Shown: positions 26,993 to 58,260 of the stretch, in pieces | Numbering within the stretch: the stretch's first letter is position 1 | Layout of the letters: the number at the start of each line of letters is the position of its first letter | From: Candidatus Helarchaeota archaeon | Lineage (GTDB): Archaea; Asgardarchaeota; Lokiarchaeia; Helarchaeales; RDOG01 | Assembly: GCA_019058315.1 (NCBI GenBank) | Contig: JAHPZH010000002.1 | Span: 1,339,726 to 1,403,725, forward strand | Direction of reading: 5' to 3' | Length of the DNA stretch: 64,000 nt | The notes under the pieces: generated by a model | What the model was told of the DNA's origin: nothing | Databases searched by the model: none | What the model saw: the letters and a program-made list of their open reading frames with translations, nothing else | Position numbers and translations under genes: made by a program

Positions 26993-27011
26993 TTATTTAT
27001 TTTTTTATTTT

Positions 27012-29277: not shown

Positions 29278-29496
29278 AAAAAGCAATATTCTTTTTTTTT
29301 TATTTCTTAAAAAAATAGTTAAATTTTATATTTAATTAGTATATTTATCTATTTTTTATTCGATTTCATTTGTATCTTTATAATCTTATTTTTTATTATT
29401 GGGATTAATTTTTAAAATATACAATCGTATAAAAAAATTGACAAAAAATTAAAAAGAAAATTCGTAAATTGGATATTAATTTATAGTTTTAACCCA

Positions 29497-37048: not shown

Positions 37049-37049
37049 A

Positions 37050-37943: not shown

Positions 37944-37944
37944 T

Positions 37945-40900: not shown

Positions 40901-40974
40901 GTTCTGCGGTTGATCTACTCGGTTTTACGGACGAACAAATATCATTAATTATAAATTCACGAGCTATAGCTTGA
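37945..40974 (+). CDS. hdrA: tandem HdrA-HdrA fusion (two FAD Rossmann modules, multiple 4Fe-4S)
   Basis: VLVVGGGIAGIQSSLDLADSG...TFPTNDCSMCILAPKMVACSRHPNI; VFICHCGINIG; second KVLVIGGGIAGITAALEAE; C-terminal CTACGLCVENCP / CKGCGTCSANCR. Likely TTG start at 37945 with GGAGGT upstream (ORF track GTG at 37930). Confidence 0.92.
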   Translation: MKDLVGAVLVVGGGIAGIQSSLDLADSGFKVYLAESLPSIGGKMAQLDKTFPTNDCSMCILAPKMVACSRHPNIEIMTYSDIVDFKGEPGNFSVTVNKRARFIDESKCIGCGTCAEKCPVRKKVFNKFNENLEYRRAAYRLFPQAIPSTFLIDKNNCIFFKTGKCKACEKFCPADAVDFEQKDELITLNVGSVIISSGMGVFNPSKLSNFGYGIVPDVVTSIEFERILSASGPYGGHILRPSDKVPPKKIAFIQCVGSRDRSINRNFCSAACCMYAIKEAIIAKEHEPDLDITIYYMDIRAFGKDFEKYYENAKNIGIKFIRSRPTSAQKHGNQIKIIYEDDTEELKDDLFDLVVLSVGFQHNEKIQEIDNIFNLQTNEFGFTKTDSFNQMKTNTKGVFACGINSGPKDIPETVTQASAAAGCASALLAPTRGKLVKPKELPEEIDVRGQPPRIGVFICHCGINIGSVVDVPNVVEYAKTLPNVVIADESLYTCSADSQNSIKEKIKEYNLNRVVIASCTPRTHEPLFQETIREAGLNRHLFEMCNIREQDSWVHMKEPEKATQKAKELVRMATLKANKIEQLQKISLDIVKKVLVIGGGIAGITAALEAEKQGYPVYLIEKKEKLGGLLNQIHILLDDEDPQKYLADRVEELNSSKNIQVFLNSELIELGGFVGNFKAKIKTGDKIEELDAGAVIIATGGELYKPIEYFYGKDERIVTGLEFEKLMYDNQIKGKTFCFIQCVGSRNDQNPYCNRICCSEAVKNAIKIKEKIPDSNVFILYRDLRVYGLNEKYYGKARDMGVFFINYEQENPPEAKLENGVLTVEVYDKILKKYINIKPDNLILSVGIDQRTNSKPNFAELSQKLKVPLNKEGFFLEAHMKLRPVDFATDGIFLCGTAHWPKLIPETISQAIAAVSRASTILSKDSIETEGIVARVNPVRCTACGLCVENCPYNAIELQEVRGKKIAVVNEALCKGCGTCSANCRCSAVDLLGFTDEQISLIINSRAIA

Positions 40975-41543: not shown

Positions 41544-44500
41544 TTGGCGAATAATATTCTTGTGCTAGGTGGTGGAATAAGCGGAATACAAGCTTCACTC
41601 GACCTAGCTGAAATGGGGCTGCGCGTTTTCTTAGTTGAATCTTCTCCAAGTATTGGAGGTAGAATGGCTCAGCTAGACAAGACATTTCCGACCAATGACT
41701 GCTCTATATGCATTCTTGCGCCAAAAATGGTCGAATGTGCACGCCATCCAAATATAACCATCTTATCCTATAGTGAGCTTAAAGAAGTTAATAAAAAAAA
41801 TGATGTTTTTACAGTTAAAATATTAAAGAAGCCACGTTATGTTGATGAAATTAAATGTACTGGTTGTAGAGACTGTTTCACTGTATGCCCCATAGAAGTA
41901 CCAAATGAATTTGACCAAAATCTTAGAAATAGAAATGCAATTTATATTCCTTTTCCACAAGCAGTCCCTAACATCGCCACAATTGACAAAGAAAATTGTA
42001 TTAATTGTGAGGCATGTTCAAAAAAATGTAAAACTGATGCCATTAATTATGATCAAAAACCTGAATTGATTGAACTAGAGGTTCAATCCATAATTGTTTC
42101 TATTGGCTTTGATTTATTTGATCCGAGTAAAATTTTACAATATGGTTATAAAAAATTTAAAAATGTTCTAACTTCTCTTGAATTTGAACGATTATTAAGT
42201 GCTTCTGGACCAACTCAAGGTGAAATATTAAAACTTTCAGATGGAAAATCACCTAAACACATTACTTTTATTCAATGTGTAGGTTCAAGAAGCACTAAAT
42301 ACCAACCTTATTGTTCGAAAATATGTTGTGTCTATACAACGAAAGAATCCATTGTAGCCAAGGAACATAATCCAAACATTCAGATTTCCATTTTATATAA
42401 TGATTTACGTGCATTAGGGAAGGGTTTCCGGGAATTTATTAATCGTGGAGAAATAGAATACGGTATAAATTATATTAAAGCACTTCCTGGGGAAATTTCA
42501 GAGGATCCTATAACTAAAAAATTATACGTGTCTTATGAAAACATGGATACGGGAGAATTTGAGATTCTAGAAACTGATATTGTTGTATTAGCTCCCGCAA
42601 TGGTTCCAAAAAAAGATATTGAGCAAATATCTAATATTTTAGGTATTAAACTTGATAAATATGGGTTTTTTAAATGTGAACCATATTCTCCATTAGTTAC
42701 AGATATTCCAGGTATCTATGTGACTGGGACCTGTTCTGGTCCTAAGGATATTCCGGAATCTGTAGGAGAAGGAAGTGGTGGGGCAGCAAGTGCTTTAGTT
42801 CCAAATGAACAAGAACATCAACCAATCCCTGAAAAACAACCAAAGCTGGAAAATACCTCACCAGCCCAACCAAGGATAGGTGTATTTATCTGTCATTGTG
42901 GAGTAAATATCGGTGGAATTGTTGATATAAAAGAAGTGGCGGATTATATCAGATCTTTAAATAATGTCGTTTTTGTTGCTGAAAACTTATATACTTGCTC
43001 AGAAGATACTCAAAAAATAATTAAAGATAAGATTAAGGAATTAAATCTTAATAGAGTGATTGTTGCTTCTTGTACCCCAAGCACCCATGAACCTTTATTT
43101 AGAAAAACTTGTGAAGAAGCTGGACTAAACCCATACTTATTTGATCTAGCAAATATTCGTGAGCAAAATTCATGGGTTCATCAAAGAGAACCAGAAAAGG
43201 CAACTGAAAAGGCCAAAGATATAATTCGAATGTATGTTAAACGATCACAATATTCTAGTCCTTTAACTAAAATTAAAACAGAAGTCACTTCATCGGCATT
43301 GGTAATTGGGGGTGGGATTTCAGGCTTAATTGCTTCAAAAACCATTGCTAATAAAGGATTTAAAGTATTTTTAATTGAAAAAGAGGATAAATTGGGAGGT
43401 TTAATAAAAGATCTTTATAAATTATATCCAAATGAGAAAAATCCTGAAGATATATTAAACCCTATTATATCTGATGTGATAAAAAATAAAAATATAGAGG
43501 TTTTAACGTCTACTCGAATTGAAAATATAACAGGATCAATTGGTAATTTTGAAATTTTAGCGTTTAAAAATAATAAAGAATTCAATTTCAATGTAGGTAC
43601 AATTATCGTTGCGATTGGTGCAAATGAATCAAAACCAGATGGATTGTATGGTTACAAAAAAAATGCTAACGTTTATACACAGTCTGAATTTGAACAAATT
43701 CTAAGTTCAAATAAAGTAAAAAATGATGAAAAAATTGTTATGATTCTTTGTGCTGGAGTTGGGAAAGGAGAGAAAATTGCATATTGTTCCTCCATCTGCT
43801 GCATGGAAGCATTTAAAAATGCCTTAATTCTAAAAAAACAAGCTCCTAATTCAGAAATCATTATTTTATATAAGGATATTTGTGTATTTGGAGATGGTGA
43901 AGAAGTATATAGAACAGTTAGGGAAGAAGGTATTCAATTTATAAAATATAATGCGAAAGAGGATATAAAAATTCTCGAATCTAAAGGAATTAAGATAAAT
44001 ATTTCAGTTTTTAATAGTTTTCTGAATAAAGATGTAAAAATTGTAGCGGATCGAATTGTTTTATCTACTCCAATGATACCAGCAACAGATACTGAAGATT
44101 TATCAAAATTACTGAGAGTACCTTTAGCTTACAATGGATTCTTTTTAGAGGCACATGTAAAACATAGACCACTCGATTTTACAAATGATGGAATTTATCT
44201 TTGTGGATCTTGTCAAAGTCCAAAATCTATCTCCGAATGTATCGCACAAGCTAAAGGAGCAGCAGCTAGAGCTCTAATACCTTTAATTAAGGGCGAGGTT
44301 GAAAGTGAAGCAATAATATCAGAGGTGAATCCCGAAATTTGTGTGGGTTGTGAAATTTGTGAATTACATTGTCCTTATGGTGCAATTACTGTCCAAAAAG
44401 ATGAAAATGAAGATCTTAAAGCTCAAGTTAATCCAAGTTTATGTAAAGGCTGCGGAATTTGTGCAGCAAGCTGTCCTGTAGATGCAATAACAATGAAAAA

Positions 44501-44981
44501 TTTCACAAATGAGCAAATTCTCTCTATGGTTCAAACTGCAAAACAAGATTCTTCATTAAAAGATGAGACTATAATCATAGCTTTTTTATGTAATTGGTGT
44601 TCTTATCAAGGAGCTGATAATGCGGGAGTAAGTAGATTTCAATATCCAACATCAATAAGACCTATTAGGGTAATGTGCACGGGAAGAATAAGTATAAGCC
44701 ATATTTTAAATGCTTTTAAAGCAGGTGCTGATGGTGTACTTATCGCAGGCTGCCATCCGGGAGATTGCCATTATGTGGACGGTAATTTAAGTGCAGAGAG
44801 AAAAGTAAACTTAGCGAAACAGTTATTAAATAAAATAGGAATTAACGAGCGAAGACTTCGCCTAGAATGGATATCTGCAAGTGAAGGTAAAAAATATGCA
44901 TCTGTTGTAAAAGACTTTCTTAACGAGTTAGAAGAATTAAAGACCAAAAAGGAAATGGTTGTGAGGGTTAAAGACTATTGA
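41544..44981 (+). CDS. hdrA: tandem HdrA-HdrA-MvhD fusion
   Basis: NILVLGGGISGIQASLDLAEMG...TFPTNDCSICILAPKM; VFICHCGVNIGG; SALVIGGGISGLIASKTI; CVGCEICELHCP/CKGCGICAASCP; C-terminal FLCNWCSYQGADNAGVSR...RVMCTGRIS...GCHPGDCHY MvhD. Confidence 0.92.
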   Translation: MANNILVLGGGISGIQASLDLAEMGLRVFLVESSPSIGGRMAQLDKTFPTNDCSICILAPKMVECARHPNITILSYSELKEVNKKNDVFTVKILKKPRYVDEIKCTGCRDCFTVCPIEVPNEFDQNLRNRNAIYIPFPQAVPNIATIDKENCINCEACSKKCKTDAINYDQKPELIELEVQSIIVSIGFDLFDPSKILQYGYKKFKNVLTSLEFERLLSASGPTQGEILKLSDGKSPKHITFIQCVGSRSTKYQPYCSKICCVYTTKESIVAKEHNPNIQISILYNDLRALGKGFREFINRGEIEYGINYIKALPGEISEDPITKKLYVSYENMDTGEFEILETDIVVLAPAMVPKKDIEQISNILGIKLDKYGFFKCEPYSPLVTDIPGIYVTGTCSGPKDIPESVGEGSGGAASALVPNEQEHQPIPEKQPKLENTSPAQPRIGVFICHCGVNIGGIVDIKEVADYIRSLNNVVFVAENLYTCSEDTQKIIKDKIKELNLNRVIVASCTPSTHEPLFRKTCEEAGLNPYLFDLANIREQNSWVHQREPEKATEKAKDIIRMYVKRSQYSSPLTKIKTEVTSSALVIGGGISGLIASKTIANKGFKVFLIEKEDKLGGLIKDLYKLYPNEKNPEDILNPIISDVIKNKNIEVLTSTRIENITGSIGNFEILAFKNNKEFNFNVGTIIVAIGANESKPDGLYGYKKNANVYTQSEFEQILSSNKVKNDEKIVMILCAGVGKGEKIAYCSSICCMEAFKNALILKKQAPNSEIIILYKDICVFGDGEEVYRTVREEGIQFIKYNAKEDIKILESKGIKINISVFNSFLNKDVKIVADRIVLSTPMIPATDTEDLSKLLRVPLAYNGFFLEAHVKHRPLDFTNDGIYLCGSCQSPKSISECIAQAKGAAARALIPLIKGEVESEAIISEVNPEICVGCEICELHCPYGAITVQKDENEDLKAQVNPSLCKGCGICAASCPVDAITMKNFTNEQILSMVQTAKQDSSLKDETIIIAFLCNWCSYQGADNAGVSRFQYPTSIRPIRVMCTGRISISHILNAFKAGADGVLIAGCHPGDCHYVDGNLSAERKVNLAKQLLNKIGINERRLRLEWISASEGKKYASVVKDFLNELEELKTKKEMVVRVKDY

Positions 44982-47900
44982 CAAACAATGAGATAATTAA
45001 AAAATACAATAACCTATTAATTATAGGCGCAGGACTTGCAGGCATGGAATGTGCCCTCGATCTCGCCGATGCGGGCTATAAAGTCTATTTGGTTGAAAAC
45101 AAGTCCTCTATTGGGGGAAAATATGCACAAATATATAAAATATTTCCTTATGACGAATGCGGTGCCTGTATTTTAACACCTAAAATGAATCAAGTTGGTA
45201 AACACCCCAATATTGAAAATATTACTCTTGCAGAAATAAAAGGTGTGAAAGGGTCTCTAGGAAATTTTGAAGTTACTATTTTAAAACATCCAAGGTATGT
45301 GGATGAAGATAAATGCACAGGATGTGGGAAATGTATAGAAACCTGTCCTGTGGAAGTTTCAAACGAATATGATCTGGGATTATCTAAAAGAAAAGCAATT
45401 TATCTAGATTTTGCACAACAAATACCATTCGTAGTTACTATTGATAAAGATAATTGCATAGATTGTAGAATGTGTGTTCAAAGATGTAAAGCTGAAGCAA
45501 TAGACCATGATATGAAGGAAAAAGAAATTATATTACAAGTTGGGGCAATTATTATCAGTACAGGTTTTGAAGAATTTGATCCCTCTATAAAAGAAGAATA
45601 CGGGTTTAAACGTTATAAAAACGTAATTACAAGTTTAATGTATGAAAGAATGACTCATCCGGCAGGTCTGGACAATATATCACGTCTATCTGATGGTAGA
45701 AAACCAAGAAGGGTAGTCTTTGTTAATTGTGTAGGAGCAAGAGACGAAAGTATTGGAAACTTATATTGTAATAAAGTATGTTGTATGTTCTCAATGAAAA
45801 ATGCAAGGAATTTACGATTGCATGAACCAGATGCGGAAATTATTATTTGCTATATTGATATAAGGGCTGCTGGCAAATTATTCGAAAGATATTATCGCTC
45901 TACTTTAGAACAATATGGAATCAAATTTATTAGGGGTAGAGTTAGTGAAATTTTAGAAGATCCTAATACAAAAGATCTGACAGTTCGTCTAGAAGACACA
46001 GAAGGAGCTGAACCGATCTCTCTTGAGAATGTAGACTATGTAATTTTAAATTGCTCATTTGTACCTTCCGAAGGAACTAAAAAAATGGCAGAATTCTTTA
46101 ATTTAGAACTCGGCTCTGATGGATTTATCCAAGATTTTCATTCTAATATAGGAGCTATTGAAACAAAAATACCTGGAGTTTATGTAATCGGAACTGCTCA
46201 TGGTCCAAAGGATGGTACGGATGTAATTGCCGAATCAAAGGCTGCAGCTTCAGCTTGTACTGCAGATCTTCCTCCATTGTCAAGAGATTTAAAGGAAAAA
46301 ATAATCGAAAAGAAAGAAATTGATGAATCTAAACTAAGAGTGGGTGTATTTGTTTGTCATTGTGGAGGGATTATTTCACATACTGTTGATGTTAAAGAAT
46401 TGGTTGAGAAATTAAAAGAAGATCCTGATATTGAATTTGTTCAAGATTACATATTCATGTGTTCTAGTCCTGGTCAAGATTTAATAAGAGAAAGTATAAA
46501 GAAATATAATTTAAATCGAATTATTGTAGCATCTTGCAGTCCACTTATCCATGAGCCTACATTTCGCGGTTGTGTAGAATCAACTGGGCTTTCACGCTTT
46601 TATTTCGAGGGTCCTATAAATATTAGAGAACAATGCGCCATGGTACATAAGGACTACCCCGAAGATGCCACCACGAAGGCTTTGGCTTTAATTAAAGGTG
46701 GGGTAGCGAGAGTTTCACGCTTAAGAGAGGTCCCTATAGAAAAATTGGATGTAAAAAAATCAGTTTTAATTTTAGGTGGAGGGGCTTCAGGGATAACTGC
46801 TGGAATTGATTTAGCCAAAAAAGGATTAACTGTTTATATAATCGAGAAAGAAGAGGAAATTGGAGGTAGATTAAATAAATTATATAAATTATTTCCCCAT
46901 AAAGATGATGCACAAGAAATTTTGAAAGAATTAAAAACCAAAATAAAGCTTTATAAAAATATAATTATACACACATCAAGTAGAATTACAAATTTTTCCG
47001 GTCGCATTGGGGATTATAATGTTAAAATTAATAAAAATGGAAAAGAAATAGAATTAAATGTTGGTTCTATAATCGTTTCTATTGGTACTAAGGTTTATAC
47101 GCCGGAAATTGGCGAATATTGCTTTGGAGAAACTAAAAATGTTATCACCTCTTTAGATCTTGAAGAAATGCTCAAAAATGACTCTTTAAAAGACCCTGTA
47201 TCTATAGCTTTTATTCAATGTGTTGGTTCAAGAGCGTATCCTGGGGAAAAAGGGCACATTCATTGCTCTAGAGTGTGCTGTAATTCAGCTATTAAAAATG
47301 CTGAAATTATTAAAGAGAAATTTCCAAATTCTAACGTATTTATTTTATACAAAGAGTTTTTGAGAGTATATGGCCGTTTTATGGAAGAAAAATATATCGA
47401 TACGCAGATGAAGGGTGTTAATTTTATCAGATGGCTTAAAGATAAACCACCCCAAGTAGAAGTTGATTCGAAATCGAATAAGATTATGATATCTGTATAT
47501 GATTCACTATTGCAAGATGAGATAAAAATTACGGCAGACTACCTCGTTTTATCAGTGGGTCAAGAATCTCCAGAAGATTTAGATAATTTATGCAACATTC
47601 TTGGGATAACAAAATCCATTGATGGGTTCGTTGAAGAAATGCATATTAAATTTCGCCCAGTTGAAACTAAGGTTCCTGGAATTTATTCTTCATCCTCATT
47701 TCCCAAAGACATAGCTGATTCTATCGCTCTTGCTCGTGGTGCAGCAAGCAAAGTCGCGATACAACAGAAGGGTATTGAATTAGAATTAACAACTGCTGAA
47801 GTGGATGAGTCAGTTTGTGTTGGTTGTGGATTATGTGAGGCTGTTTGTCCATATGAGGCGATAAAAATGGTCGCAATAAAACCTGGCAAAATAATCTCGG

Positions 47901-48028
47901 TAACTGATACAATAAAATGTCAAGGATGTGGTACATGCGTAGCATCTTGCCCCATAGGTGCAAGAGATCACAGATGGTGGCGTGATTCTCAATATCTTGC
48001 TCAAATAGACGCAATATTAAATGAATAA
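44978..48028 (+). CDS. hdrA: tandem HdrA-HdrA fusion
   Basis: NLLIIGAGLAGMECALDLADAG...FPYDECGACILTPKM; VFVCHCGGIISHTVD; SVLILGGGASGITAGIDLAKKG; CVGCGLCEAVCP/CQGCGTCVASCP; TTG start overlaps previous stop. Confidence 0.92.
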   Translation: MTNNEIIKKYNNLLIIGAGLAGMECALDLADAGYKVYLVENKSSIGGKYAQIYKIFPYDECGACILTPKMNQVGKHPNIENITLAEIKGVKGSLGNFEVTILKHPRYVDEDKCTGCGKCIETCPVEVSNEYDLGLSKRKAIYLDFAQQIPFVVTIDKDNCIDCRMCVQRCKAEAIDHDMKEKEIILQVGAIIISTGFEEFDPSIKEEYGFKRYKNVITSLMYERMTHPAGLDNISRLSDGRKPRRVVFVNCVGARDESIGNLYCNKVCCMFSMKNARNLRLHEPDAEIIICYIDIRAAGKLFERYYRSTLEQYGIKFIRGRVSEILEDPNTKDLTVRLEDTEGAEPISLENVDYVILNCSFVPSEGTKKMAEFFNLELGSDGFIQDFHSNIGAIETKIPGVYVIGTAHGPKDGTDVIAESKAAASACTADLPPLSRDLKEKIIEKKEIDESKLRVGVFVCHCGGIISHTVDVKELVEKLKEDPDIEFVQDYIFMCSSPGQDLIRESIKKYNLNRIIVASCSPLIHEPTFRGCVESTGLSRFYFEGPINIREQCAMVHKDYPEDATTKALALIKGGVARVSRLREVPIEKLDVKKSVLILGGGASGITAGIDLAKKGLTVYIIEKEEEIGGRLNKLYKLFPHKDDAQEILKELKTKIKLYKNIIIHTSSRITNFSGRIGDYNVKINKNGKEIELNVGSIIVSIGTKVYTPEIGEYCFGETKNVITSLDLEEMLKNDSLKDPVSIAFIQCVGSRAYPGEKGHIHCSRVCCNSAIKNAEIIKEKFPNSNVFILYKEFLRVYGRFMEEKYIDTQMKGVNFIRWLKDKPPQVEVDSKSNKIMISVYDSLLQDEIKITADYLVLSVGQESPEDLDNLCNILGITKSIDGFVEEMHIKFRPVETKVPGIYSSSSFPKDIADSIALARGAASKVAIQQKGIELELTTAEVDESVCVGCGLCEAVCPYEAIKMVAIKPGKIISVTDTIKCQGCGTCVASCPIGARDHRWWRDSQYLAQIDAILNE

Positions 48029-48034
48029 AAATAT

Positions 48035-48460
48035 ATGGTGTTAAAATTTCCCCCTAAACAACCAGTAATTTTAATGTTTGCCTGTATGAGATGCAGTTAT
48101 ACTGCTTCAGACCTAGCGGGAACATTAAAAATTCAATACAATCCAATAGTTCGTATTATAAGGGTTCCTTGTACGGGAAGAGTTGATATTATTCATATAT
48201 TGCGAGGAATAGTTGATGGTGCTGATGCAGTTCTCGTAGTTGGTTGTCATAAAGGGGATTGCGGATTTATTTCAGGAAATCTAGCTGCTGAAAGACGAGT
48301 GAAATTTGTAAGAAACTTATTAAAACAGATGAATATTAATCCTGATCGCGTTCAAATGCACTATGTTTCAGCCGCAGAAGCAAATGAAGTAGTCGAAATT
48401 ATAGAAAAAGTAGCTAAACAGGTTGCAAAAATGGGTCCCTCACCGTTTAGAACAAAATGA
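48035..48460 (+). CDS. mvhD: MvhD-like [2Fe-2S] subunit
   Basis: MFACMRCSYTASDLAGTLKIQYNP...RVPCTGRVDIIHILRGIVDGADAVLVVGCHKGDCGFISGN. Confidence 0.92.
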   Translation: MVLKFPPKQPVILMFACMRCSYTASDLAGTLKIQYNPIVRIIRVPCTGRVDIIHILRGIVDGADAVLVVGCHKGDCGFISGNLAAERRVKFVRNLLKQMNINPDRVQMHYVSAAEANEVVEIIEKVAKQVAKMGPSPFRTK

Positions 48461-48476
48461 AATGGAATTGATTTGA

Positions 48477-48764
48477 TTGGACGAAGAGAAAGAAAAATTA
48501 AACAAAATCATAAAACAATTGGAAAAAACAAAGGACAAGGATAGTAATGATTGGAAAAAAATCACTACAGAACACAAAGAAGAATTTGAAGTAATAAAGA
48601 AATCATATCGTGAAAAGCAAAATGAGTTGAGACAACTAATCCAAGATAAAAAAACAGGAATTGTAATGGGAGAAGAATTTGATAAAAGACTTGATGAATT
48701 ACAGAACGAATTAACTGAACTTGAATTCAAAATTTATAAATTAAGAATAGGCAGAGGCAGTTAA
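48477..48764 (+). CDS. short coiled-coil protein within the Hdr cluster
   Basis: 95 aa, K/E-rich heptad-like, in-line between mvhD and hdrA-like gene. Confidence 0.6.
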   Translation: MDEEKEKLNKIIKQLEKTKDKDSNDWKKITTEHKEEFEVIKKSYREKQNELRQLIQDKKTGIVMGEEFDKRLDELQNELTELEFKIYKLRIGRGS

Positions 48765-48769
48765 AAATT

Positions 48770-50065
48770 ATGCAAAATAAAGCAATTATTATCGGAAATG
48801 GACTTGCTGCATTACAAGCAGCAATTGAATTAGCTGATTTAGGGGTCAAAGTAAGTCTCATTTCCAATCAAGACTCTTTAGGAGGTAATGCCAAGAATTT
48901 ATACAAGGCATTTCCAACAGATGATTGTTTTTACTGTATTAGTTCGATAAAGGAAAAATGTGGTATTAGAAAATGCTTTTATCGTGCAGGAATATGGGAA
49001 CATCCAAATATTGTAGTTTATTTAGATTCACAAATTTCAAAAATTGAAGGTGAAATAGGAAATTTTAAAATTGCCCTTAAACAAAACCCCCAGTATATTG
49101 ACCATAATAAATGCATTCAATGTGGGGAATGTGAACGTATATGCCCAATATTAATGGATATTGATGATGAATTGGGAATTAGAAAAAGAAAAGCAATTTA
49201 TCATAGATTACAAAATATTCCATATTCTTATTTCATTCAGAGAGAATATTGCGATTCAAATTGTACAAAATGTGAAGAAATCTGCCCTATAAATGCTATT
49301 AATTTAAATTCCTCATCTGAAAATCATAATTTAACAGCTAGTATAATCATAATCGCCAGTTCTTATTCCGAATATAACCCTTCTGAATTAAAAGAATATC
49401 ATTACGGTGAGTTTCCTAATGTTATTACTCAAGTTCAATTAGCTAGAATGTTAGATCCTACTGGTCCGACTCAAGGAAAATTAGTAAGAATGACCGATTT
49501 AAAACCAGCAAAGAAGATTTTAATGTTACAATGCGTCGGATCACGGGATGACAATACAAATAAATATTGTAGTGAGATATGTTGCACTTTTGCGTGCAAA
49601 CATGCCGAAATTATAAAAAAAGAACGTGAAAATCAAGCGCAAATAACTATTGTATACAAAGATATTAGAACAGATGGATTTTATGAGATAAATTATAGAA
49701 ATTGTAGAGAATTGGGAATTGATTTCTTAAAAGGTCACATATCTGATATTGTAGAAAAAGACAATACATTACAAATTTTAGTTTTTGATGTTATTTTAAA
49801 TAGGCATATCGAATTTGAAGTGGATTTATTAATTTTAACTTGTGCTTTAGTTCCCTCCGATCTTTCTAAATCGATTATGAACCAATTTAATATCGAATTA
49901 AAGGAAAATGGATTTCCCAATACGAGTTTTGATCTAATTGAAAGTTCAAGAAAGGGAATATTTCTATGCGGTTCTTCAATTAAGCCAATTTCAATTCCAG
50001 AATCAATTAATCTGGCAAAGGCAGCTGCATTTAAAGCATTTCAAAGTTTAAGGAGTGATAGTTGA
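48770..50065 (+). CDS. HdrA-like flavoprotein, N-terminal half of a split tandem HdrA
   Basis: AIIIGNGLAALQAAIELADLG...AFPTDDCFYCISSIKEKCGIRKC; CIQCGECERICP; LQCVGSRDDNTNKYCSEICC; aligns with first half of tandem HdrAs. Confidence 0.85.
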   Translation: MQNKAIIIGNGLAALQAAIELADLGVKVSLISNQDSLGGNAKNLYKAFPTDDCFYCISSIKEKCGIRKCFYRAGIWEHPNIVVYLDSQISKIEGEIGNFKIALKQNPQYIDHNKCIQCGECERICPILMDIDDELGIRKRKAIYHRLQNIPYSYFIQREYCDSNCTKCEEICPINAINLNSSSENHNLTASIIIIASSYSEYNPSELKEYHYGEFPNVITQVQLARMLDPTGPTQGKLVRMTDLKPAKKILMLQCVGSRDDNTNKYCSEICCTFACKHAEIIKKERENQAQITIVYKDIRTDGFYEINYRNCRELGIDFLKGHISDIVEKDNTLQILVFDVILNRHIEFEVDLLILTCALVPSDLSKSIMNQFNIELKENGFPNTSFDLIESSRKGIFLCGSSIKPISIPESINLAKAAAFKAFQSLRSDS

Positions 50066-52208
50066 AAAAATGGATAGAGATTCTAGCAAAATTCCGGTTT
50101 TTATTTGTACTTGCGGAGACAAATTAAAAGAAAAATTAGATTATGAAAAAATAAGAAAAGAAATTCAGGAATTTCATTCTCCCAACCCGGTTAAAATACT
50201 TAAATTTCTGTGTATTGAGGAAGATAAAAATAAAATTCTCGAGACTTTAGATAAATCTACAAATAAATTTGTTGTTGCAGCTTGTACACCACAGAAATTA
50301 GAATATGAATTAAGAACATTTTTAAGAACTCATGGAAAAGACCCATTTTCATTTGATATTGCAAATATTCGTGAGCATTGTGCTTGGGTGCATGAAAATA
50401 AAGCCCTTGCAACCGAAAAAGCAATTGCTTTAATTAAATCTTCAATAGAAAGAATAAAATATGCTCCAAAAATTAATGAAGATAAAATCAAGATTCAAAA
50501 ACATGTCCTAATTATTGGAGCAGGCATTTCTGGACTACAAACTGCTATAAACCTAAAATCTTTGGGTTATAAAGTTGTAGTATTGGAAAAAGAATCTTCA
50601 GCAGGTGGACATGTTGGTAAATTATCTAAAATTTATCCATTTGGCATAAAAGGTAAGGTATTAATTGATGAGAAATTGGATTTAATTGAAAAAAATAATA
50701 TTAATATCATATACAATTGTCAAGTCAATTGGATTAGCGGTTCATTTGGTAATTTTAAATGCAATATAACAATAGATTCAGGGGAAGAACAAATTAAAAA
50801 CACCTCTGCAATTGTTATAGCTACTGGTCATAAAGTATTTGAACCTAATAACCTTTTACAATATAAATATGGAATATCACCTGATATTATAACACTTTTC
50901 GAACTATCAAATATTTTAAATAATAATAGTTCGTCAAAAAAAGAATTAATTAGATTAAGTAACGGAAAACCAGTTAAAAATATTCTTATGGTTCAATGTG
51001 TAGGCTCTAGAGATGTTAACAATTTTGAATACTGCAGTAAATATTGTTGTACCTCAGCTATAGATCATGCCATTGAAGTAAAGGAGAAATTTAAAGATGT
51101 TAATATTACCATAAATTACTTCGATATCCGCACACCATTTGAACAAGAGGCAATATATCGTGAAGCTAGGGGACTGGGAATTGATTTTTTCAGGGGTAAA
51201 ATCGGGGAGATAAGTATTGATGATAACAATCAATTAATTACTCAAGCTATGGATACTATAATTGGAAATTTAGTAGAATTAAAAAGTGATTTAGTAGTTT
51301 TGTCTACTGCATTAATACCTAATCTAGAAAATAATCAATTATTCGAATTATTAAATTTAGAATTCAGAAATGGAGGGTTTATTAAAGAATATTATGATAA
51401 ATTGAAAAAACTAGAAACAAAAAGAAAAGGAATCTATGTCTGTGGAACAGTTTCTGGTCCAAAAACAATTCCACAGTGCATTTATGAAGCTCATGCTGTT
51501 AGTTTAAAAGTTTTTCAAGAAATAGGGGATGGAGAAATAACAAAAAATCTAACGGTTACCACCATAGATGAAGATTTATGTAATGGTTGCGAACTTTGTG
51601 CGAGAATTTGCCCTTTTAACATTCCAATCATGAAAGAAGTGGGGAACGAATTAAAAGCTGAAATAGATCCCTTTAGTTGCAAGGGCTGTGGAATTTGTGC
51701 TAGTATTTGTCCAACAGGAGCAGCACAATTACAGACAAACTTAAGGGATCAATTAATTATACAAATAAAAGCCATTTTAAAAGATATAAAGGAATCAAAA
51801 GATTCCATAATCTTGGGATTTGTTTGTGATGAATGTGGGTACGCTACAATAGATGCAGCTGGTATATTGAATACACCATATTCAGAAAAGGTGAGATTCA
51901 TTAGATTACCTTGTATTGGGCGTCTTTCCCTACTGGATATATTTACTGCATTTGCAGAAGGTGCAAGTGGAGTTCTACTTATTGGATGTGCAAAAGAAAG
52001 ATGCCATTATCTTAAAGGAAGTTCAAAAACTGAAATTGAAGTCGCAATTACAAAGGAGATTTTGAAGGAAATAGGCTGGGAGCCTGAAAGAATTGAATAT
52101 CATGGTATGTTTCATGCAGAACCAGAGAAATTTCTTAATGCAGTGAAAGAAATGGTTGAAAAGATGAATAAATTGGGTATTACCAAGATTTTAAAAAATA
52201 AGGAATGA
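50055..52208 (+). CDS. HdrA-MvhD fusion, C-terminal half of the split tandem HdrA
   Basis: VFICTCGDKLKE; HVLIIGAGISGLQTAINLKSLG; CNGCELCARICP/CKGCGICASICP; FVCDECGYATIDAAG...RLPCIGRLS...GCAKERCHY. Confidence 0.9.
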   Translation: MIVEKMDRDSSKIPVFICTCGDKLKEKLDYEKIRKEIQEFHSPNPVKILKFLCIEEDKNKILETLDKSTNKFVVAACTPQKLEYELRTFLRTHGKDPFSFDIANIREHCAWVHENKALATEKAIALIKSSIERIKYAPKINEDKIKIQKHVLIIGAGISGLQTAINLKSLGYKVVVLEKESSAGGHVGKLSKIYPFGIKGKVLIDEKLDLIEKNNINIIYNCQVNWISGSFGNFKCNITIDSGEEQIKNTSAIVIATGHKVFEPNNLLQYKYGISPDIITLFELSNILNNNSSSKKELIRLSNGKPVKNILMVQCVGSRDVNNFEYCSKYCCTSAIDHAIEVKEKFKDVNITINYFDIRTPFEQEAIYREARGLGIDFFRGKIGEISIDDNNQLITQAMDTIIGNLVELKSDLVVLSTALIPNLENNQLFELLNLEFRNGGFIKEYYDKLKKLETKRKGIYVCGTVSGPKTIPQCIYEAHAVSLKVFQEIGDGEITKNLTVTTIDEDLCNGCELCARICPFNIPIMKEVGNELKAEIDPFSCKGCGICASICPTGAAQLQTNLRDQLIIQIKAILKDIKESKDSIILGFVCDECGYATIDAAGILNTPYSEKVRFIRLPCIGRLSLLDIFTAFAEGASGVLLIGCAKERCHYLKGSSKTEIEVAITKEILKEIGWEPERIEYHGMFHAEPEKFLNAVKEMVEKMNKLGITKILKNKE

Positions 52209-54442
52209 TGGATGATATGGGTATTCCAGTTGACATTGCACCAAAAAGAAAGATTTTTTATGAATTACTCATAAAAATTCTGAAATTACAACAAAAAGAA
52301 GAAATTGAGATCGAATTCGAAGACCTAAAAACACTCGAATCGAATTTAAAAGAATTCAAAAATGAATTTCCAAAATTTAATTCCAATTTATTATCAAAAA
52401 TTGAAGATTTTCTACATAAATTAAACGTTTTAGAAAAAGTTAACAATCAACTATTTTTAAAAGAAACAATAGAGAAATTAAATCAAGTCGAAATTAAAAC
52501 AGATATTGAAAAAAACGCAATTTTTAAATTAAAAGAATTAATTGAAACAAGAATTAATACTATTGAGGGAACAGTTGCCCAAATTTCAATAGATAAAAAA
52601 GTAATTTCATTGTTGCTTAAAGATATTAAAAATATTACAGATTTATTAAATTCAAAAATTAAACCTGTTTATGAGCATTTTCTTAAAAAACAAAGCATAA
52701 AAGAAGACGAATTAAATAAAATTTTAGATAATTATATTCAAATTAAAGAAATTACGGAATTTAAAGAATTTCAAGAGAAATTTAAATTAATTTCAAGAAT
52801 AATGCGTGATAAAGGACTAATTTATTCTGTTTCTCAAATAAATAAATCGTTAAATGAAAGTAAAATCGATGATAAACGTGCAAATGTTCTACTTCATAAA
52901 AATATATTCCCTAAATTGGATCAAGCGATAATTTTATTCATCATTAATACACTCGGTCCTCAAACAATAGAGGATCTATACCAAAAAACAGGAATTGCAA
53001 AAGATAGATTATTTCAAGGAATTCTTAGAATTCTAGATAGAAAAGAAATTGAAATCTTAAAGGAAAAAGAAGGACAACCTGTTTATACTAAAATTAAATT
53101 AAAATCAAATATACTTGAATCAATAGATAAGAATTTGAAAATAATTATTAATATTAGAGACAAAATCGATCAAGATTCTGAATTATTTAACAAAATCATA
53201 GAAAATTTAAATGAATTTAGACAATATTTGGATTCAATTGATGAATTTGATGAAAAAATCTTCCAAGATTCTATTTTTAAATTAAAATCTAGTGTTCAAA
53301 AATTAATAAACTTGATTCCTCAATTTTCTCTTGACAAGAAAGAGGAAAAGATAATAGATAGAATTGATGGTATGATTGAAGCCCTCAAGCTTTATCGCCT
53401 TAATTTAACATTTGAGAAAAGAGAAAATTTAAAGGAAATCAGTACAGAACTAAAATATAAAGTATCTAAATTAATTTTAGATTCTATGGATCAAGATTTC
53501 GAAAGGGGACAAATAATAGCTACTATAAAAAAGAAAGGTCCATTAAATATAATTGACCTTTCTAAAGCTACCGGTCTACAAAGAGATAAGATATATTCTC
53601 ATATGATTCAATTAAAAACTGATAATAGAATTAAAATAATAGGTTCTAAAGAAGGATATGATTTATACGATGTTTCTAGAGTTAAAACTGAAGAAGAAAA
53701 ACTAATTGAAGATTTTTTAAATATCATTCTCGAATTCAAAATCATTCAAACAAACTATGAAAATGCGATATTAGATGTTAAATTTAATCTTGATAAAATT
53801 AACCTTTATTTGGAACAATTCCTTCAAAAATTAAATAATATAGTAAATATAAAATTCTTAAATCAACAATTTAGCGAAGAAATCTATAAAGAATACTCAA
53901 AAAGAGTTAAGGGAGTAATAGATACACTTACCAGTATTAAAGGGAAGGTCAAGGTTAAAAAAGCCGAAATTAATTTTGACGAATTAGTTCCTATTTTAGT
54001 GCCTTCAACAGAAGATGAATTTTCACATTTAATAGAACCAAAGCAACTGATAGGCTTTGGTACTATAAAAAGTAATGAAAAGAGATGCTTATCTTGCCGC
54101 AGTTGCCAAGATATATGTGAAGAATCAGCTGTAACCTTAAAAAATGTCTGGAATTTACCGCTTATTTTTGAGCTTTCAGAAGAAGAATTGAATGATCTTC
54201 CAGGATCAAAAAAGATGTTATTTAATATCATAAAAAAAATTGCCCAAAAGAAACCTTCGAATATAATCAATATACCTGATGGGGCAATAGGATATGGAAG
54301 ACCCGAATTTGAGCCGATTAAATGCATCGCTTGTAAAAAATGTGTTGAAAGATGCCCAAATGAGGCAATAGAATTTGAAGAAGTGTGGAATTTTCCAGAA
54401 ATTATCAAATCAGCCTCTAAATCCTTAACTATGGAGGATTAA
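52205..54442 (+). CDS. hybrid protein: long coiled-coil, two winged-helix-like segments and C-terminal ferredoxin motifs
   Basis: GPQTIEDLYQKTGIAKDRLFQGILRIL and GPLNIIDLSKATGLQRDKIYSHMIQL HTH-like; CLSCRSCQDICEE and CIACKKCVERCP. Confidence 0.75.
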   Translation: MMDDMGIPVDIAPKRKIFYELLIKILKLQQKEEIEIEFEDLKTLESNLKEFKNEFPKFNSNLLSKIEDFLHKLNVLEKVNNQLFLKETIEKLNQVEIKTDIEKNAIFKLKELIETRINTIEGTVAQISIDKKVISLLLKDIKNITDLLNSKIKPVYEHFLKKQSIKEDELNKILDNYIQIKEITEFKEFQEKFKLISRIMRDKGLIYSVSQINKSLNESKIDDKRANVLLHKNIFPKLDQAIILFIINTLGPQTIEDLYQKTGIAKDRLFQGILRILDRKEIEILKEKEGQPVYTKIKLKSNILESIDKNLKIIINIRDKIDQDSELFNKIIENLNEFRQYLDSIDEFDEKIFQDSIFKLKSSVQKLINLIPQFSLDKKEEKIIDRIDGMIEALKLYRLNLTFEKRENLKEISTELKYKVSKLILDSMDQDFERGQIIATIKKKGPLNIIDLSKATGLQRDKIYSHMIQLKTDNRIKIIGSKEGYDLYDVSRVKTEEEKLIEDFLNIILEFKIIQTNYENAILDVKFNLDKINLYLEQFLQKLNNIVNIKFLNQQFSEEIYKEYSKRVKGVIDTLTSIKGKVKVKKAEINFDELVPILVPSTEDEFSHLIEPKQLIGFGTIKSNEKRCLSCRSCQDICEESAVTLKNVWNLPLIFELSEEELNDLPGSKKMLFNIIKKIAQKKPSNIINIPDGAIGYGRPEFEPIKCIACKKCVERCPNEAIEFEEVWNFPEIIKSASKSLTMED

Positions 54443-54443
54443 A

Positions 54444-54980
54444 ATGACAGATATTAATTCAGATATAGAATTAAAAGAACCAATAAAAATGGAAGATGTA
54501 GATCCTGAATTTAAGTATGAAATTGCCGACACTGATGAAGGTAAAACTATCTTATATTGCTATCAATGTGGTACCTGTTCAAGTAGTTGCCAGAGTGCAT
54601 GTGCTGATTTATATCCTCATCAAATAATTCGAATGGCATTACTTGGACTAAAAAAAGAAGTGTTGAATTCAAAATCCATATGGATATGTACAACCTGCTA
54701 TGATTGCATAGAACGCTGTCCACAAGGAGTTGAAGTTGCAAATGTGCTTTTTGCGATTAAAAATATTGCCGTAAAAGAAAACATTATCCCTAAAGGTTTT
54801 AAATTATTTGCAAAAAATATTTTCAGGATGGGTAGGGGCGCTGAAATTACAGATATGCAAGAAGATGAAAGAGATGATTTGGATCTGCCACCAGTTCCAA
54901 AAGTCGATAAAGAAGCCATTAAAAAAATGTTAAAAAAAGTAAATTTTGAGGAAATGATTGAATCTAAAGAAGGAAAATAA
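54444..54980 (+). CDS. hdrC: heterodisulfide reductase subunit C-like (second copy)
   Basis: YCYQCGTCSSSCQSACADLYPHQIIRMALLGLKKEVLNSKSIWICTTCYDCIERCPQGVEVANVLFAIKNIA. Confidence 0.9.
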   Translation: MTDINSDIELKEPIKMEDVDPEFKYEIADTDEGKTILYCYQCGTCSSSCQSACADLYPHQIIRMALLGLKKEVLNSKSIWICTTCYDCIERCPQGVEVANVLFAIKNIAVKENIIPKGFKLFAKNIFRMGRGAEITDMQEDERDDLDLPPVPKVDKEAIKKMLKKVNFEEMIESKEGK

Positions 54981-54982
54981 AA

Positions 54983-55861
54983 ATGAAATATGCTTATTAC
55001 TTAGGTTGCACTGTTCCTGCAAGAGTTAATCAATATGACGCAGCAGTTCGTAAATCTTCTGAAAAATTAGATATTGAGTTAATTGATATAGAAGGGGCAG
55101 GTTGTTGTGGTCCAGTTAACATTAAATCTGTAAATTATAAAGCTTGGATACTATTAGGTGCAAGAAATATCGCCTTAGCTGAAAAAATGGGTTTGGATAT
55201 CGTTACTCTATGTAATGGATGCTATTCAACTATGAAAGAAGTTGATCATTATTTAAAGAATAATGGAACCTTATTAAAAGAAGTTAATGAAATTTTAAAA
55301 GAAGAAAATCTATCATTTTCTGGAAAAATTAAAATTAAACAATATATAGAAATTATTTTGGATTTTGGGCTCGATAAAATCAAACAAAAATTCGTAAAAT
55401 CTTGTGATGGACTTAAAACTGCCGTACATTATGGCTGTCATTTGTTAAAACCCTCTAATGTGGCACAACTAGATAATCCAGAAAGTCCACAAATATTAGA
55501 TCAATTAACAGAGCTTACTGGAGCAAAAAGCATCGACTGGCAATATAAAAATAAATGCTGCGGTGCTCCAGTTTTAGCAATAAATGAAAAACTCGCTTTA
55601 AAAATGATGCATGAAAAATTAATTGGTGCAAAAAACGCTGGAGTAGATTGCTTCGTAACTGTATGCCCCTTTTGTTTTATCGAATTAGATTTAATGCAAC
55701 TTAAGGTGCAAACAGAATTTAAAGAAAAATTTGACATTCCTGTAATTCTATTGCCACAATTGTTTGGATTGGCTATGGGGCTTGAATCTGATGCATTGGG
55801 GCTTGATCTACACCGAATTGAAACTGATATTATTTTAGGATTTTTTAAAAATAAGGATTGA
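54983..55861 (+). CDS. hdrB: heterodisulfide reductase subunit B-like (second copy)
   Basis: GAGCCGPVN...LCNGCYST; HYGCHLLKPSN...NKCCGAPVL...CPFC. Confidence 0.92.
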   Translation: MKYAYYLGCTVPARVNQYDAAVRKSSEKLDIELIDIEGAGCCGPVNIKSVNYKAWILLGARNIALAEKMGLDIVTLCNGCYSTMKEVDHYLKNNGTLLKEVNEILKEENLSFSGKIKIKQYIEIILDFGLDKIKQKFVKSCDGLKTAVHYGCHLLKPSNVAQLDNPESPQILDQLTELTGAKSIDWQYKNKCCGAPVLAINEKLALKMMHEKLIGAKNAGVDCFVTVCPFCFIELDLMQLKVQTEFKEKFDIPVILLPQLFGLAMGLESDALGLDLHRIETDIILGFFKNKD

Positions 55862-55918: not shown

Positions 55919-57052
55919 TCAACGCCAAAGACCGTCAACAAGATTACCATAAATTTGCTGTTCTTTTTCCACTCCATCAATAGAACGAATTCGATTACGA
56001 ACTTTTTTCATCTTAATCGCATTTTCTGGACAATTTGTAGCACAAACGCCACATCCAAGACACAAATCATTGTTTACTATGATTTTTTCGTCATGTTTAG
56101 AAACAGCTTCCATTTGACATTTTTTTACACAAGTTTCACATAAAATACACCGCTCTTGGTCATGTATAGGTGCAAAATTACTTGGGTTAACGTTTTTGAC
56201 ACGAACTTCTTTGGTTGGAATTAAAATACCGCAATGACAAGTACAACAATTACAAAAACCTAGAATTTCGTCATCTCCGCCGGGGATGTTGTGAATTAAA
56301 CCTGCTTCCTCGGTTTTTTTCAGATATTGTATGGTTTCCTCTTTAGTTAAAGGTCTCCCCCAACCTAACTCTAGAAATAATTGTGCTGCTATACCCATAA
56401 AAATGCAGCCCATCTCAGCTGGAGCTTTACTACAAGGATCTCCAGATAATTCTCCCACTAAACGACATGGGCAAGTTACTACAACAAATTTTTCATTTTT
56501 ATTAATAACATTCTCTAAAATTTCATAGGGAAGGACTTGAGATCCGACTTCAACCGATTCATTTATTTCAATAAGTCTATCTTTAGCTTCATACGAAAGT
56601 ATAGTAGTGAAATTCAAATTTTCCCAATCTTTTGCTCTTTGTTTTAACACTTCTTTTGTTTGAAATGCAACTGGGTGCTTGAGTATATATCGGAAAGCTT
56701 TAGCAGCATTTCTAAGATTCTCTTCTGTGTCTTGTTTTGCCCAAAAATAAGCTTCTAATAAATGCGGGAATAAAGGCACTAATCCATATTTAGCACCAAA
56801 TTTTGCTATAGTTTTCTTTTTTGCAGCTTTTAACAAAATTTCTTTTATATGACTTTTAGGTTTTCCTGTTATTTTAACTAATTCTTTTACAGAAATGGAT
56901 TGCCCAACATCTGGAAAATGAGCAAGAATCTCTATATCCTCTTTATTCCAAAAAAGTTTCATTAATTCATAAGTTTTTTCGTGTTTATCTGCGCTATATG
57001 GTCCCAGAGTTAGCTTTTGTCTCACAATTTCGTAAGGATCAGTTTCAGACAT
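55919..57052 (-). CDS. wHTH-like N-terminus + Cys-rich + 2x[4Fe-4S] ferredoxin protein
   Basis: ISVKELVKITGKPKSHIKEILLKAAKKKTIAKFGAKYGL; TCPCRLVGELSGDPCSKAPAEMGC; FCNCCTCHCGIL; CILCETCVKKCQ, CLGCGVCATNCP. Confidence 0.8.
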   Translation of the reverse strand: MSETDPYEIVRQKLTLGPYSADKHEKTYELMKLFWNKEDIEILAHFPDVGQSISVKELVKITGKPKSHIKEILLKAAKKKTIAKFGAKYGLVPLFPHLLEAYFWAKQDTEENLRNAAKAFRYILKHPVAFQTKEVLKQRAKDWENLNFTTILSYEAKDRLIEINESVEVGSQVLPYEILENVINKNEKFVVVTCPCRLVGELSGDPCSKAPAEMGCIFMGIAAQLFLELGWGRPLTKEETIQYLKKTEEAGLIHNIPGGDDEILGFCNCCTCHCGILIPTKEVRVKNVNPSNFAPIHDQERCILCETCVKKCQMEAVSKHDEKIIVNNDLCLGCGVCATNCPENAIKMKKVRNRIRSIDGVEKEQQIYGNLVDGLWR

Positions 57053-57126
57053 ATAAAAACCAACATCATTTATTAATTTTTAAAATTCTCAATTTAAAAA
57101 AGCATCTGATCTTCAAGAGTAACTAA

Positions 57127-58260
57127 TTAACTCATAAGGCCTCCAACAAGGCGATCAAAAATTTTTTCCTCTTCTTTCACATTCTTTACAGATCGGGGTT
57201 TATTTCGGACTTTTTGCATCTTAATAGCATTTTCTGGACAGTTTATAGCACAAACACCACAACCAAGACATAAATCGTAATTTACTATGATTTTTCCATT
57301 TTGTTGAGAAATAGCTTCCATTGGACATATTTTTATACAGTTCTTACATAAAGCACATCGCTCTTGGTTATGTATAGGTGTAAAATTGCTTGGATTGACG
57401 TTCTTGATTCCAAATTCTTTGGTCGGATGTAAAAGACCGCAATGACAAGAACAACAATTACAAAAACCCAGGATTTCAGGACTGTTGCTTGGAAGGTTGT
57501 GAACTAAACCTGCTTCCTCGGTTTTTTTCAGATATTCTAGTGCCTCTTCTCTATTTAAAGGTCTTCCCCAACCTAATTCTACAAATAATTGTGCTGCTAT
57601 TCCTATAATAAAGCAACCCATCTCTGATGTAGCTTTACTACAGGGCTCCCCTGATAATTCTCCTACTAAACGACATGGACAAGTGACTACAGCAAACTTA
57701 TCATTTTTATCAATAACATTTTTTAAGGTTTCATAGGGAAGGACTCGAGATTGGACATTAACCGATTCATTTATTTCAATAAGCCTATCTTTAGCTTCAT
57801 ATGGAAGGATAGGAGTTAAATTCATATCTTCATATCCTTCTGCTCTTTTTTCTAATACTTCTTTTGTTTGAAATGCAAATGGGTTTGTAAACATATAACG
57901 GAAAATTTTGGCAGCGTTTTTAAGATTTTCTTTAGTATCTTTTCTTGCCCATACATAAACTTCTAATAAACCTGGGAATAAAGGAATAAATCCATATTTA
58001 TTTCCAACTCTTGTTATGGTTTTCTTTTCTGCTGCATTCTTTAAAATTTTTTTAATGTGACTTTTTGATTTTCCTGTTTTTTCTATTAATTTTTTTATAG
58101 AAATAGTTTTACCTATATTCGGGAAGTGAGTAAGAATTTCTATATCCTCTTCATTCCAAAAAATTTTAAGTAGTTCATATGTTTTTTCGTGTTTATCTGC
58201 AGCATATGGTCCATAAGTTAGTTTTTGCCGTACAATTTCATAATAATCATTATCAGTCAT
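57127..58260 (-). CDS. wHTH-like + Cys-rich + 2x[4Fe-4S] ferredoxin protein, tandem paralogue
   Basis: Same architecture and 377 aa length: TCPCRLVGELSGEPCSKATSEMGC, FCNCCSCHCGLL, CALCKNCIKICP, CLGCGVCAINCP. Confidence 0.8.
   Translation of the reverse strand: MTDNDYYEIVRQKLTYGPYAADKHEKTYELLKIFWNEEDIEILTHFPNIGKTISIKKLIEKTGKSKSHIKKILKNAAEKKTITRVGNKYGFIPLFPGLLEVYVWARKDTKENLKNAAKIFRYMFTNPFAFQTKEVLEKRAEGYEDMNLTPILPYEAKDRLIEINESVNVQSRVLPYETLKNVIDKNDKFAVVTCPCRLVGELSGEPCSKATSEMGCFIIGIAAQLFVELGWGRPLNREEALEYLKKTEEAGLVHNLPSNSPEILGFCNCCSCHCGLLHPTKEFGIKNVNPSNFTPIHNQERCALCKNCIKICPMEAISQQNGKIIVNYDLCLGCGVCAINCPENAIKMQKVRNKPRSVKNVKEEEKIFDRLVGGLMS

What the first reader, a model, noticed from the sequence alone, without database searches (positions are those of the whole stretch)
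52205..54442. Coiled-coil / winged-helix / ferredoxin hybrid inside the Hdr operon
A 745-aa protein with long helical segments, two HTH-like segments and two C-terminal Cys clusters (CLSCRSCQDICEE, CIACKKCVERCP) separated by ~70 aa. Adjacent starts/stops place it between the HdrA-MvhD gene and HdrC2B2. I recognise no family with this architecture. It could be a redox-sensing regulator or a scaffold for the Hdr complex.
Basis: partly seen in the sequence, partly recalled or inferred. Interest (0 to 1): 0.75.

Follow-up and report, generated by a model that had tools for sequence, protein, structure and literature searches.

The report
Asgard Hdr-complex subunit, winged-helix insert
This gene encodes a previously unnamed subunit of an energy-conserving electron-splitting enzyme complex in two groups of Asgard archaea; it looks like a known small iron-sulfur wiring subunit enlarged by a swappable docking module, and it is probably not a gene regulator.

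Summary
In detail: a 745-aa ORF (52205-54442) lies in an hdr operon directly 3' of HdrA-MvhD (ATGA overlap) and 5' of HdrC-HdrB. It has two genuine winged-helix domains and two C-terminal [4Fe-4S] motifs. No Pfam, NCBIfam, PDB-sequence or Foldseek match covers it. Full-length relatives (22-33% identity) occur in Helarchaeota (4/4 genomes of the window's order) and nearly all Thorarchaeota, and were not found elsewhere in two scans of 85,488 species. HdrA-MvhD is immediately upstream in 39/39 loci with upstream sequence; an acyl-CoA dehydrogenase follows in 36/38 Thorarchaeota loci. The C-terminal 125 aa are homologous to a standalone ~160-aa dicluster Fe-S subunit found at the same place in other Asgard hdr operons and fused to MvhD in a second Thorarchaeota operon. 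In one Thorarchaeota clade the helical/first-winged-helix part is replaced by a GltD-type NAD(P)H oxidoreductase domain. Best reading: an electron-transfer subunit of the HdrA-MvhD electron-bifurcating complex whose insert docks the mid-potential partner. A DNA-binding regulator is unlikely: wing 1 is acidic, basic residues are not conserved, the wHTH1 region is dispensable. Partner and direction of flow are inferred. New variant of a known kind.

The parts
52205..54442 (+). 745-aa subunit gene; ATG at 52205 overlaps the stop of HdrA-MvhD by 4 bp (ATGA); stop at 54440-54442, 1 bp before HdrC
   Evidence: conserved family
52241..52285 (+). N-terminal helix (res. 13-27) with invariant K14-R15; resembles the first helix of the standalone dicluster Fe-S subunit
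   Evidence: suggestive only: hhalign prob 26%, but 0/200 column shuffles reach the score
52316..52855 (+). helical region (res. 38-217)
   Evidence: AlphaFold; roughly res. 90-400 replaced by a GltD domain in one Thorarchaeota clade
52871..53095 (+). winged helix 1 (res. 223-297), neutral recognition helix, acidic wing
53108..53431 (+). helical linker (res. 302-409)
53444..53677 (+). winged helix 2 (res. 414-491), kept also in the GltD variants
53690..53944 (+). helical hairpin (res. 496-580)
54047..54409 (+). dicluster Fe-S module (res. 615-735), homologous to the standalone ~160-aa Hdr-operon subunit
   Evidence: (hhalign 99.8%, E 4.8e-29)
54086..54118 (+). [4Fe-4S] motif 1, C628-x2-C-x2-C-x3-C638
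   Evidence: invariant
54323..54355 (+). [4Fe-4S] motif 2, C707-x2-C-x2-C-x3-C717-P
   Evidence: invariant
48770..50065 (+). HdrA half 1 (431 aa): FAD domain plus inserted ferredoxin domain
50055..52208 (+). HdrA half 2 fused to MvhD (717 aa): N-terminal HdrA domain, FAD, two C-terminal [4Fe-4S], MvhD/FlpD
54444..54980 (+). HdrC (two [4Fe-4S] motifs)
54983..55861 (+). HdrB (two CCG motifs)
48477..48764 (+). small 95-aa helical protein conserved in the Helarchaeota operons
48035..48460 (+). free-standing MvhD/FlpD
41544..48028 (+). two large HdrA proteins (41544-44981 with C-terminal MvhD-like domain; 44978-48028) opening the operon

Best explanation
The protein is a stable electron-transfer subunit of an HdrABC-MvhD type flavin-based electron-bifurcating (or confurcating) complex. 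Its C-terminal dicluster Fe-S module is the same module that other Asgard hdr operons encode as a small separate subunit or as a fusion to MvhD; it probably sits next to MvhD and carries electrons between the HdrA flavin, via MvhD, and a mid-potential partner. The ~570-aa helical and winged-helix part looks like an insert between the first helix and the first cluster of that module, and acts as the docking platform for the partner, protein to protein rather than protein to DNA. In one Thorarchaeota clade half of the platform has been replaced by a GltD-type NAD(P)H oxidoreductase, so there the partner is NADP(H) on the subunit itself. Shown: homology of the Fe-S module, operon position, two winged helices, the domain replacement, no conserved DNA-binding surface. 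Inferred: physical membership in the complex, contact with MvhD, docking role, electron direction, and the partner in Helarchaeota and most Thorarchaeota (in the latter the adjacent acyl-CoA dehydrogenase is a candidate on some side of the complex).
For: Gene directly 3' of HdrA-MvhD in all 39 loci that have upstream sequence, overlapping by 4-22 nt in 35 of 36 measured (annotated starts; the real Thorarchaeota start may be slightly downstream). Identity matrices of this protein and HdrA-MvhD correlate at r 0.97, and 0.79 within Thorarchaeota; this is also expected from shared descent. C-terminal module homologous over both clusters to the standalone subunit (hhalign 99.8%, E 4.8e-29), which occupies the same slot 3' of an HdrA in L103, L104 and L105 and is fused to MvhD in L106-L108. 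GltD replacement in five genomes: NF009410 E 3.5e-146, GxGxxG and GGGNAA plus RR motifs, one clade with 100/100 support, with flanking N-terminus, winged helix 2 and Fe-S module kept. Precedent: GltD inserted in type III HdrA, proposed to use NAD(P)H, and a non-catalytic molybdopterin protein plus FdhB as donor side in type II clusters (PMC12054007). HdrB and HdrC neighbours carry full cluster motifs.
Against: No biochemical or structural evidence of a complex. AlphaFold overall pTM is only 0.37-0.39, so relative domain placement is unknown, and the Fe-S module is poorly modelled in the window protein. The partner is not identified: no hydrogenase, formate dehydrogenase or F420 protein is in the operon. 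The acyl-CoA dehydrogenase link exists only in Thorarchaeota. The insertion model rests on a weak profile match of the N-terminal helix.
Confidence: 0.66

Rival explanations
1. Redox-sensing transcription regulator: the Fe-S clusters sense redox state and the winged helices bind operators to control the hdr operon.
For: Two genuine winged-helix folds with best profile hits to MarR, TrmB and ArsR regulators; positively charged recognition helix in winged helix 2 of Thorarchaeota.
Against: Winged helix 1 has a neutral helix and a wing with mean charge -2.7; winged-helix-2 helix charge runs from -3 to +4 in Helarchaeota. Always translationally coupled to HdrA-MvhD as a structural gene. Fe-S module is an Hdr-operon subunit. 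A clade replaced the winged-helix-1 half by a NAD(P)H oxidoreductase domain.
Confidence: 0.06
2. Structural scaffold or assembly tether of the Hdr complex (for example recruiting acyl-CoA dehydrogenase), with Fe-S clusters that are not on the main electron path.
For: Tandem winged helices with helical spacers resemble protein-interaction scaffolds such as RPC62 and UFL1-DDRGK1 in Foldseek, though without global superposition. A non-catalytic partner with a proposed structural role exists in type II hdr clusters (PMC12054007).
Against: All eight cluster Cys are invariant and the module is homologous to a stand-alone Fe-S subunit and to an MvhD fusion, which argues for electron transfer; the GltD replacement adds a redox module here.
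Confidence: 0.15
3. A separate ETF-substitute that takes electrons from the acyl-CoA dehydrogenase and passes them to HdrA-MvhD, that is, a dedicated acyl-CoA-oxidation wire.
For: Acyl-CoA dehydrogenase gene immediately 3' in 36 of 38 Thorarchaeota loci; its closest named models (acryloyl-CoA reductase, cyclohexane-1-carbonyl-CoA dehydrogenase) are enzymes of anaerobic CoA-ester metabolism (recalled).
Against: No acyl-CoA dehydrogenase in the Helarchaeota operons or at L087 and L090. The GltD variants keep the dehydrogenase while gaining an NAD(P)H site, so the subunit more likely faces NAD(P)H-level chemistry there. No ETF-like domain was found.
Confidence: 0.1

Closest known systems
Standalone ~160-aa dicluster Fe-S subunit of Asgard hdr operons (no named family; alignment A4)
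   Same: Both [4Fe-4S] motifs, the VPxx-GFG repeat around each cluster, and the operon slot directly 3' of HdrA
   Different: Lacks the ~570-aa helical/winged-helix part; the first repeat's helix is displaced to the N-terminus in the 745-aa protein (suggestive)
Dicluster-MvhD fusion (304-318 aa) in the second Thorarchaeota hdr operon
   Same: Same Fe-S module, physically joined to MvhD
   Different: No winged helices; MvhD is on the same chain instead of on HdrA
Type III HdrA with inserted GltD (PMC12054007)
   Same: Capture of a GltD NAD(P)H domain by an Hdr-complex protein as mid-potential port
   Different: There GltD sits inside HdrA; here it replaces part of this accessory subunit in one clade
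Type II hdr clusters with non-catalytic molybdopterin protein and FdhB (PMC12054007)
   Same: Accessory protein beside MvhD thought to hold the electron-donor side
   Different: Unrelated fold; F420 donor; no winged helix
MarR/TrmB/ArsR winged-helix regulators
   Same: Winged-helix fold
   Different: No conserved basic DNA-binding surface, not free-standing

Membership tests
Hdr-operon dicluster Fe-S subunit (A4 family) | Two C-x2-C-x2-C-x3-C motifs, each preceded by GFG/GYG | tested here: met
Hdr-operon dicluster Fe-S subunit (A4 family) | Encoded directly 3' of an HdrA (or HdrA-MvhD) | tested here: met
   39/39 loci
Hdr-operon dicluster Fe-S subunit (A4 family) | Small (~150-165 aa), no other domain | tested here: not met
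   745 aa with helical and two winged-helix domains; so it is an enlarged derivative, not a plain member
HdrABC-MvhD bifurcating complex (as a subunit of it) | Operon holds HdrA with FAD, HdrB with CCG motifs, HdrC, MvhD | tested here: met
HdrABC-MvhD bifurcating complex (as a subunit of it) | Physical presence in the complex and electron transfer | not testable with these tools
   needs purification and EPR
Redox-sensing winged-helix transcription regulator | Winged-helix fold | tested here: met
Redox-sensing winged-helix transcription regulator | Conserved basic recognition helix and wing | tested here: not met
   wing 1 mean -2.7, wing 2 mean -2.0, helix charges not conserved
Redox-sensing winged-helix transcription regulator | Operator sites upstream of the operon | not tested
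   no operator search was made
Known mid-potential donor subunits (MvhAG, FdhAB, FdhB, Flx/Flox, GltD) | NiFe, molybdopterin, F420 or NAD(P)H domain | tested here: not met
   no such domain in the window protein; GltD present only in the five Thorarchaeota variants
Type III HdrA | GltD inserted in HdrA itself | tested here: not met
   GltD is in this subunit, not in the neighbouring HdrA

The most novel reading that the evidence does not exclude
The helical/winged-helix insert is an exchangeable docking cassette that defines a new class of electron port for Hdr complexes, one that takes or gives electrons through a protein partner (possibly acyl-CoA dehydrogenase in Thorarchaeota) instead of H2, formate, F420 or NAD(P)H; lineages can swap the cassette, as one clade did with GltD.
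Probability: 0.3. Interest if true: 0.75.

Novelty: new variant of a known kind. Interest (0 to 1): 0.55.

Why it matters
HdrA-based electron bifurcation is central to anaerobic archaeal energy metabolism, yet in Asgard archaea the partners that feed MvhD are mostly unknown. A subunit fixed in two distant Asgard classes, and replaced in part by an NAD(P)H module in one clade, marks where the missing electron enters or leaves. It makes the question of how Thorarchaeota (no McrA found in the four genomes checked) and alkane-oxidising Helarchaeota couple their metabolism to ferredoxin directly testable. It would also be a case of winged helices working as protein docking parts in a redox complex.

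Tried and rejected
Single-sequence scan of 85,488 species found nothing; the alignment scan found only Thorarchaeota and Helarchaeota, and its bacterial hits L093 and L095-L100 proved on inspection to be unrelated ferredoxin-type or other proteins. PDB sequence search gave short ferredoxin matches plus 5j5k/5j5l over the helical region (E about 6e-5), treated as low-complexity helical similarity and not followed. Foldseek on both models: best hits RPC62 and UFL1-DDRGK1 with TM about 0.1, so no global relationship. Homology to RPC82 (HTH_9, 16.9 bits, below cut-off) rejected. CoM-S-S-CoB as the universal substrate rejected: McrA is present in the window genome (3 copies) and two other Helarchaeota, but in none of four Thorarchaeota checked, nor in G084. 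A DNA-regulator role was tested by surface charge and disfavoured. No repeat relation between the N-terminal helical region and the inter-winged-helix linker (hhalign prob 7%). Papers naming this subunit: none found in the open-access library.
Full report
CHECK OF THE OBSERVATION. The ORF at 52205-54442 codes for 745 aa and is as described. Its ATG overlaps the stop of the HdrA-MvhD gene (ATGA) and its stop lies 1 bp before HdrC. The two Cys clusters are C628/631/634/638 and C707/710/713/717. In 33 aligned full-length relatives all eight Cys, K14-R15, GFG617-619, W728 and P731 are invariant. The protein matches only short ferredoxin models in Pfam and NCBIfam.

WHERE IT OCCURS. Among 232 Asgard genomes, full-length relatives occur in all four genomes of that order and in nearly all of family f28, whose records are titled Candidatus Thorarchaeota (two are titled Lokiarchaeota and two only 'archaeon'). 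An alignment-based scan of 85,488 species found no full-length relative elsewhere. The scan uses short conserved patterns, so very distant relatives could be missed.

GENE NEIGHBOURHOOD. In Helarchaeota the order is HdrA, HdrA, (MvhD), small helical protein, HdrA(431), HdrA-MvhD(717), this gene, HdrC, HdrB. In L092 a gap of about 1.6 kb separates it from HdrC-HdrB. In Thorarchaeota it is HdrC, HdrB, HdrA(420), HdrA-MvhD(720), this gene, acyl-CoA dehydrogenase. HdrA-MvhD is directly upstream at all 39 loci with upstream sequence, counting one truncated copy (L064) and the window. The acyl-CoA dehydrogenase follows in 36 of 38 Thorarchaeota loci with enough downstream sequence (not at L087 or L090). 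In 36 measured pairs, 35 overlap by 4-22 nt and one is 13 nt apart; some annotated Thorarchaeota starts may be upstream of the true ones. The two HdrA halves are complementary: the 431-aa half carries an inserted ferredoxin domain, and the 717-aa half the N-terminal HdrA domain, two C-terminal clusters and MvhD.

THE FE-S MODULE. Residues 615-741 are homologous to a standalone ~160-aa dicluster protein (hhalign 99.8%, E 4.8e-29, 31% identity over both clusters). Those small proteins lie inside hdr operons: HdrA-HdrA-[152 aa]-HdrC-HdrB in L103, HdrA-HdrA-HdrA-[161 aa] in L104, HdrC-HdrB-HdrA-HdrA-[160 aa]-HdrA-MvhD in L105. In f26 genomes the small gene lies near an HdrA-HdrA pair but on the other strand (L101, L102). 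In a second Thorarchaeota operon the same module is fused to MvhD (L106-L108). L103 and the window have the same order with the small subunit in place of the 745-aa protein. This is the strongest evidence for what the protein is. The N-terminal KR helix resembles the first helix of the small subunit (score above 200 of 200 column shuffles; but hhalign probability only 26%), so the helical/winged-helix part may be an insertion within the small subunit. This is suggestive only.

THE WINGED HELICES. AlphaFold shows two winged-helix domains, each followed by helical spacers, with local pLDDT of about 75-90. They are homologous to each other. Individual domains superpose on Z-alpha winged helices (TMt 0.90 and 0.84). 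Overall pTM is 0.37-0.39, so domain arrangement is unknown. Wing charges are negative (means -2.7 and -2.0). The recognition helix is neutral in domain 1; in domain 2 it is positive in Thorarchaeota but -3 to +4 in Helarchaeota. This argues against conserved DNA binding but does not exclude it in single lineages.

THE NATURAL DOMAIN SWAP. Five Thorarchaeota genomes carry 972-998-aa versions (open-frame lengths) in which the helical region and winged helix 1 (about residues 90-400) are replaced by a GltD-type domain with FAD (GAGPAG) and pyridine-nucleotide (GGGNAA...RR) motifs, while the N-terminus, winged helix 2 and Fe-S module remain. They form one clade with 100/100 support and keep the downstream acyl-CoA dehydrogenase. 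By family knowledge the GxGxxA plus RR motif points to NADP(H). Insertion of GltD into HdrA itself (type III) has been reported and read as a NAD(P)H port, with type II clusters using an accessory non-catalytic protein plus FdhB next to MvhD (PMC12054007).

MECHANISM. Shown: homology, position, domain content, swap. Inferred: the protein is part of the HdrA-MvhD complex, its clusters carry electrons between MvhD and a mid-potential partner, and the insert docks that partner. HdrB and HdrC have full cluster motifs. The window genome has three McrA homologues, so CoM-S-S-CoB is a plausible HdrB substrate there, but four Thorarchaeota checked have none, so the subunit is not tied to that substrate. 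All nine genomes checked have NiFe-hydrogenase-family genes, but none of these is in the operon; the partner is open.

LITERATURE. Helarchaeota hdrABC and an mvhD-bearing cluster, and multiple and fused HdrA in Thorarchaeota, have been reported (PMC6478937; PMC11237513). No held paper describes this subunit; subscription papers were not searchable.

VERDICT. A real, conserved, unnamed subunit: an enlarged variant of a known Hdr-operon Fe-S subunit. It is most likely an electron port or adaptor and not a transcription regulator.

Noticed in passing
window 36524-40974: A second hdr cluster (HdrC 174 aa, HdrB 297 aa with both CCG motifs, HdrA 1014 aa) lies just upstream of the operon.
   Followed up: partly
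window 26147-31253: By eye, an Mtd-like protein (26147-26992), a polyferredoxin (27012-27698, minus strand) and FwdD/FwdB-like proteins (29497-31253), suggesting an H4MPT-type C1 pathway beside the hdr genes.
   Followed up: no
window 55919-58260 (minus strand): Two paralogous 377-aa proteins with an HTH-like N-terminus and a C-terminal 2x[4Fe-4S] ferredoxin domain, next to a 4-hydroxybutyryl-CoA-dehydratase-like gene (58338-59801): by eye another helix-turn-helix plus ferredoxin combination in the same window.
   Followed up: partly
L106 455-1369, L107 5913-6869, L108 6548-7462: Dicluster Fe-S module fused to MvhD in a second Thorarchaeota hdr operon; no named family covers the fusion.
   Followed up: yes
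L109 5195-7609, L110 4758-7139, L114 2240-4612: ~800-aa proteins that look like molybdopterin oxidoreductases carry a related dicluster segment near their C-terminus.
   Followed up: no
L064 (Thorarchaeota bin8 chromosome) about 8612-8974: Only 120 aa of HdrA-MvhD remain upstream of the conserved gene, with no HdrA/B/C before it: rearrangement, decay or assembly error.
   Followed up: no
L051-L086, about 600-1500: A gene that by eye looks like a PCNA sliding clamp lies about 3 kb upstream of hdrC in most Thorarchaeota loci, a stable but probably unrelated neighbour.
   Followed up: no
G000:C5:377506, C3:198869, C11:316902: The window genome has three McrA-alpha homologues, consistent with an alkane-oxidising Helarchaeota relative.
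   Followed up: partly
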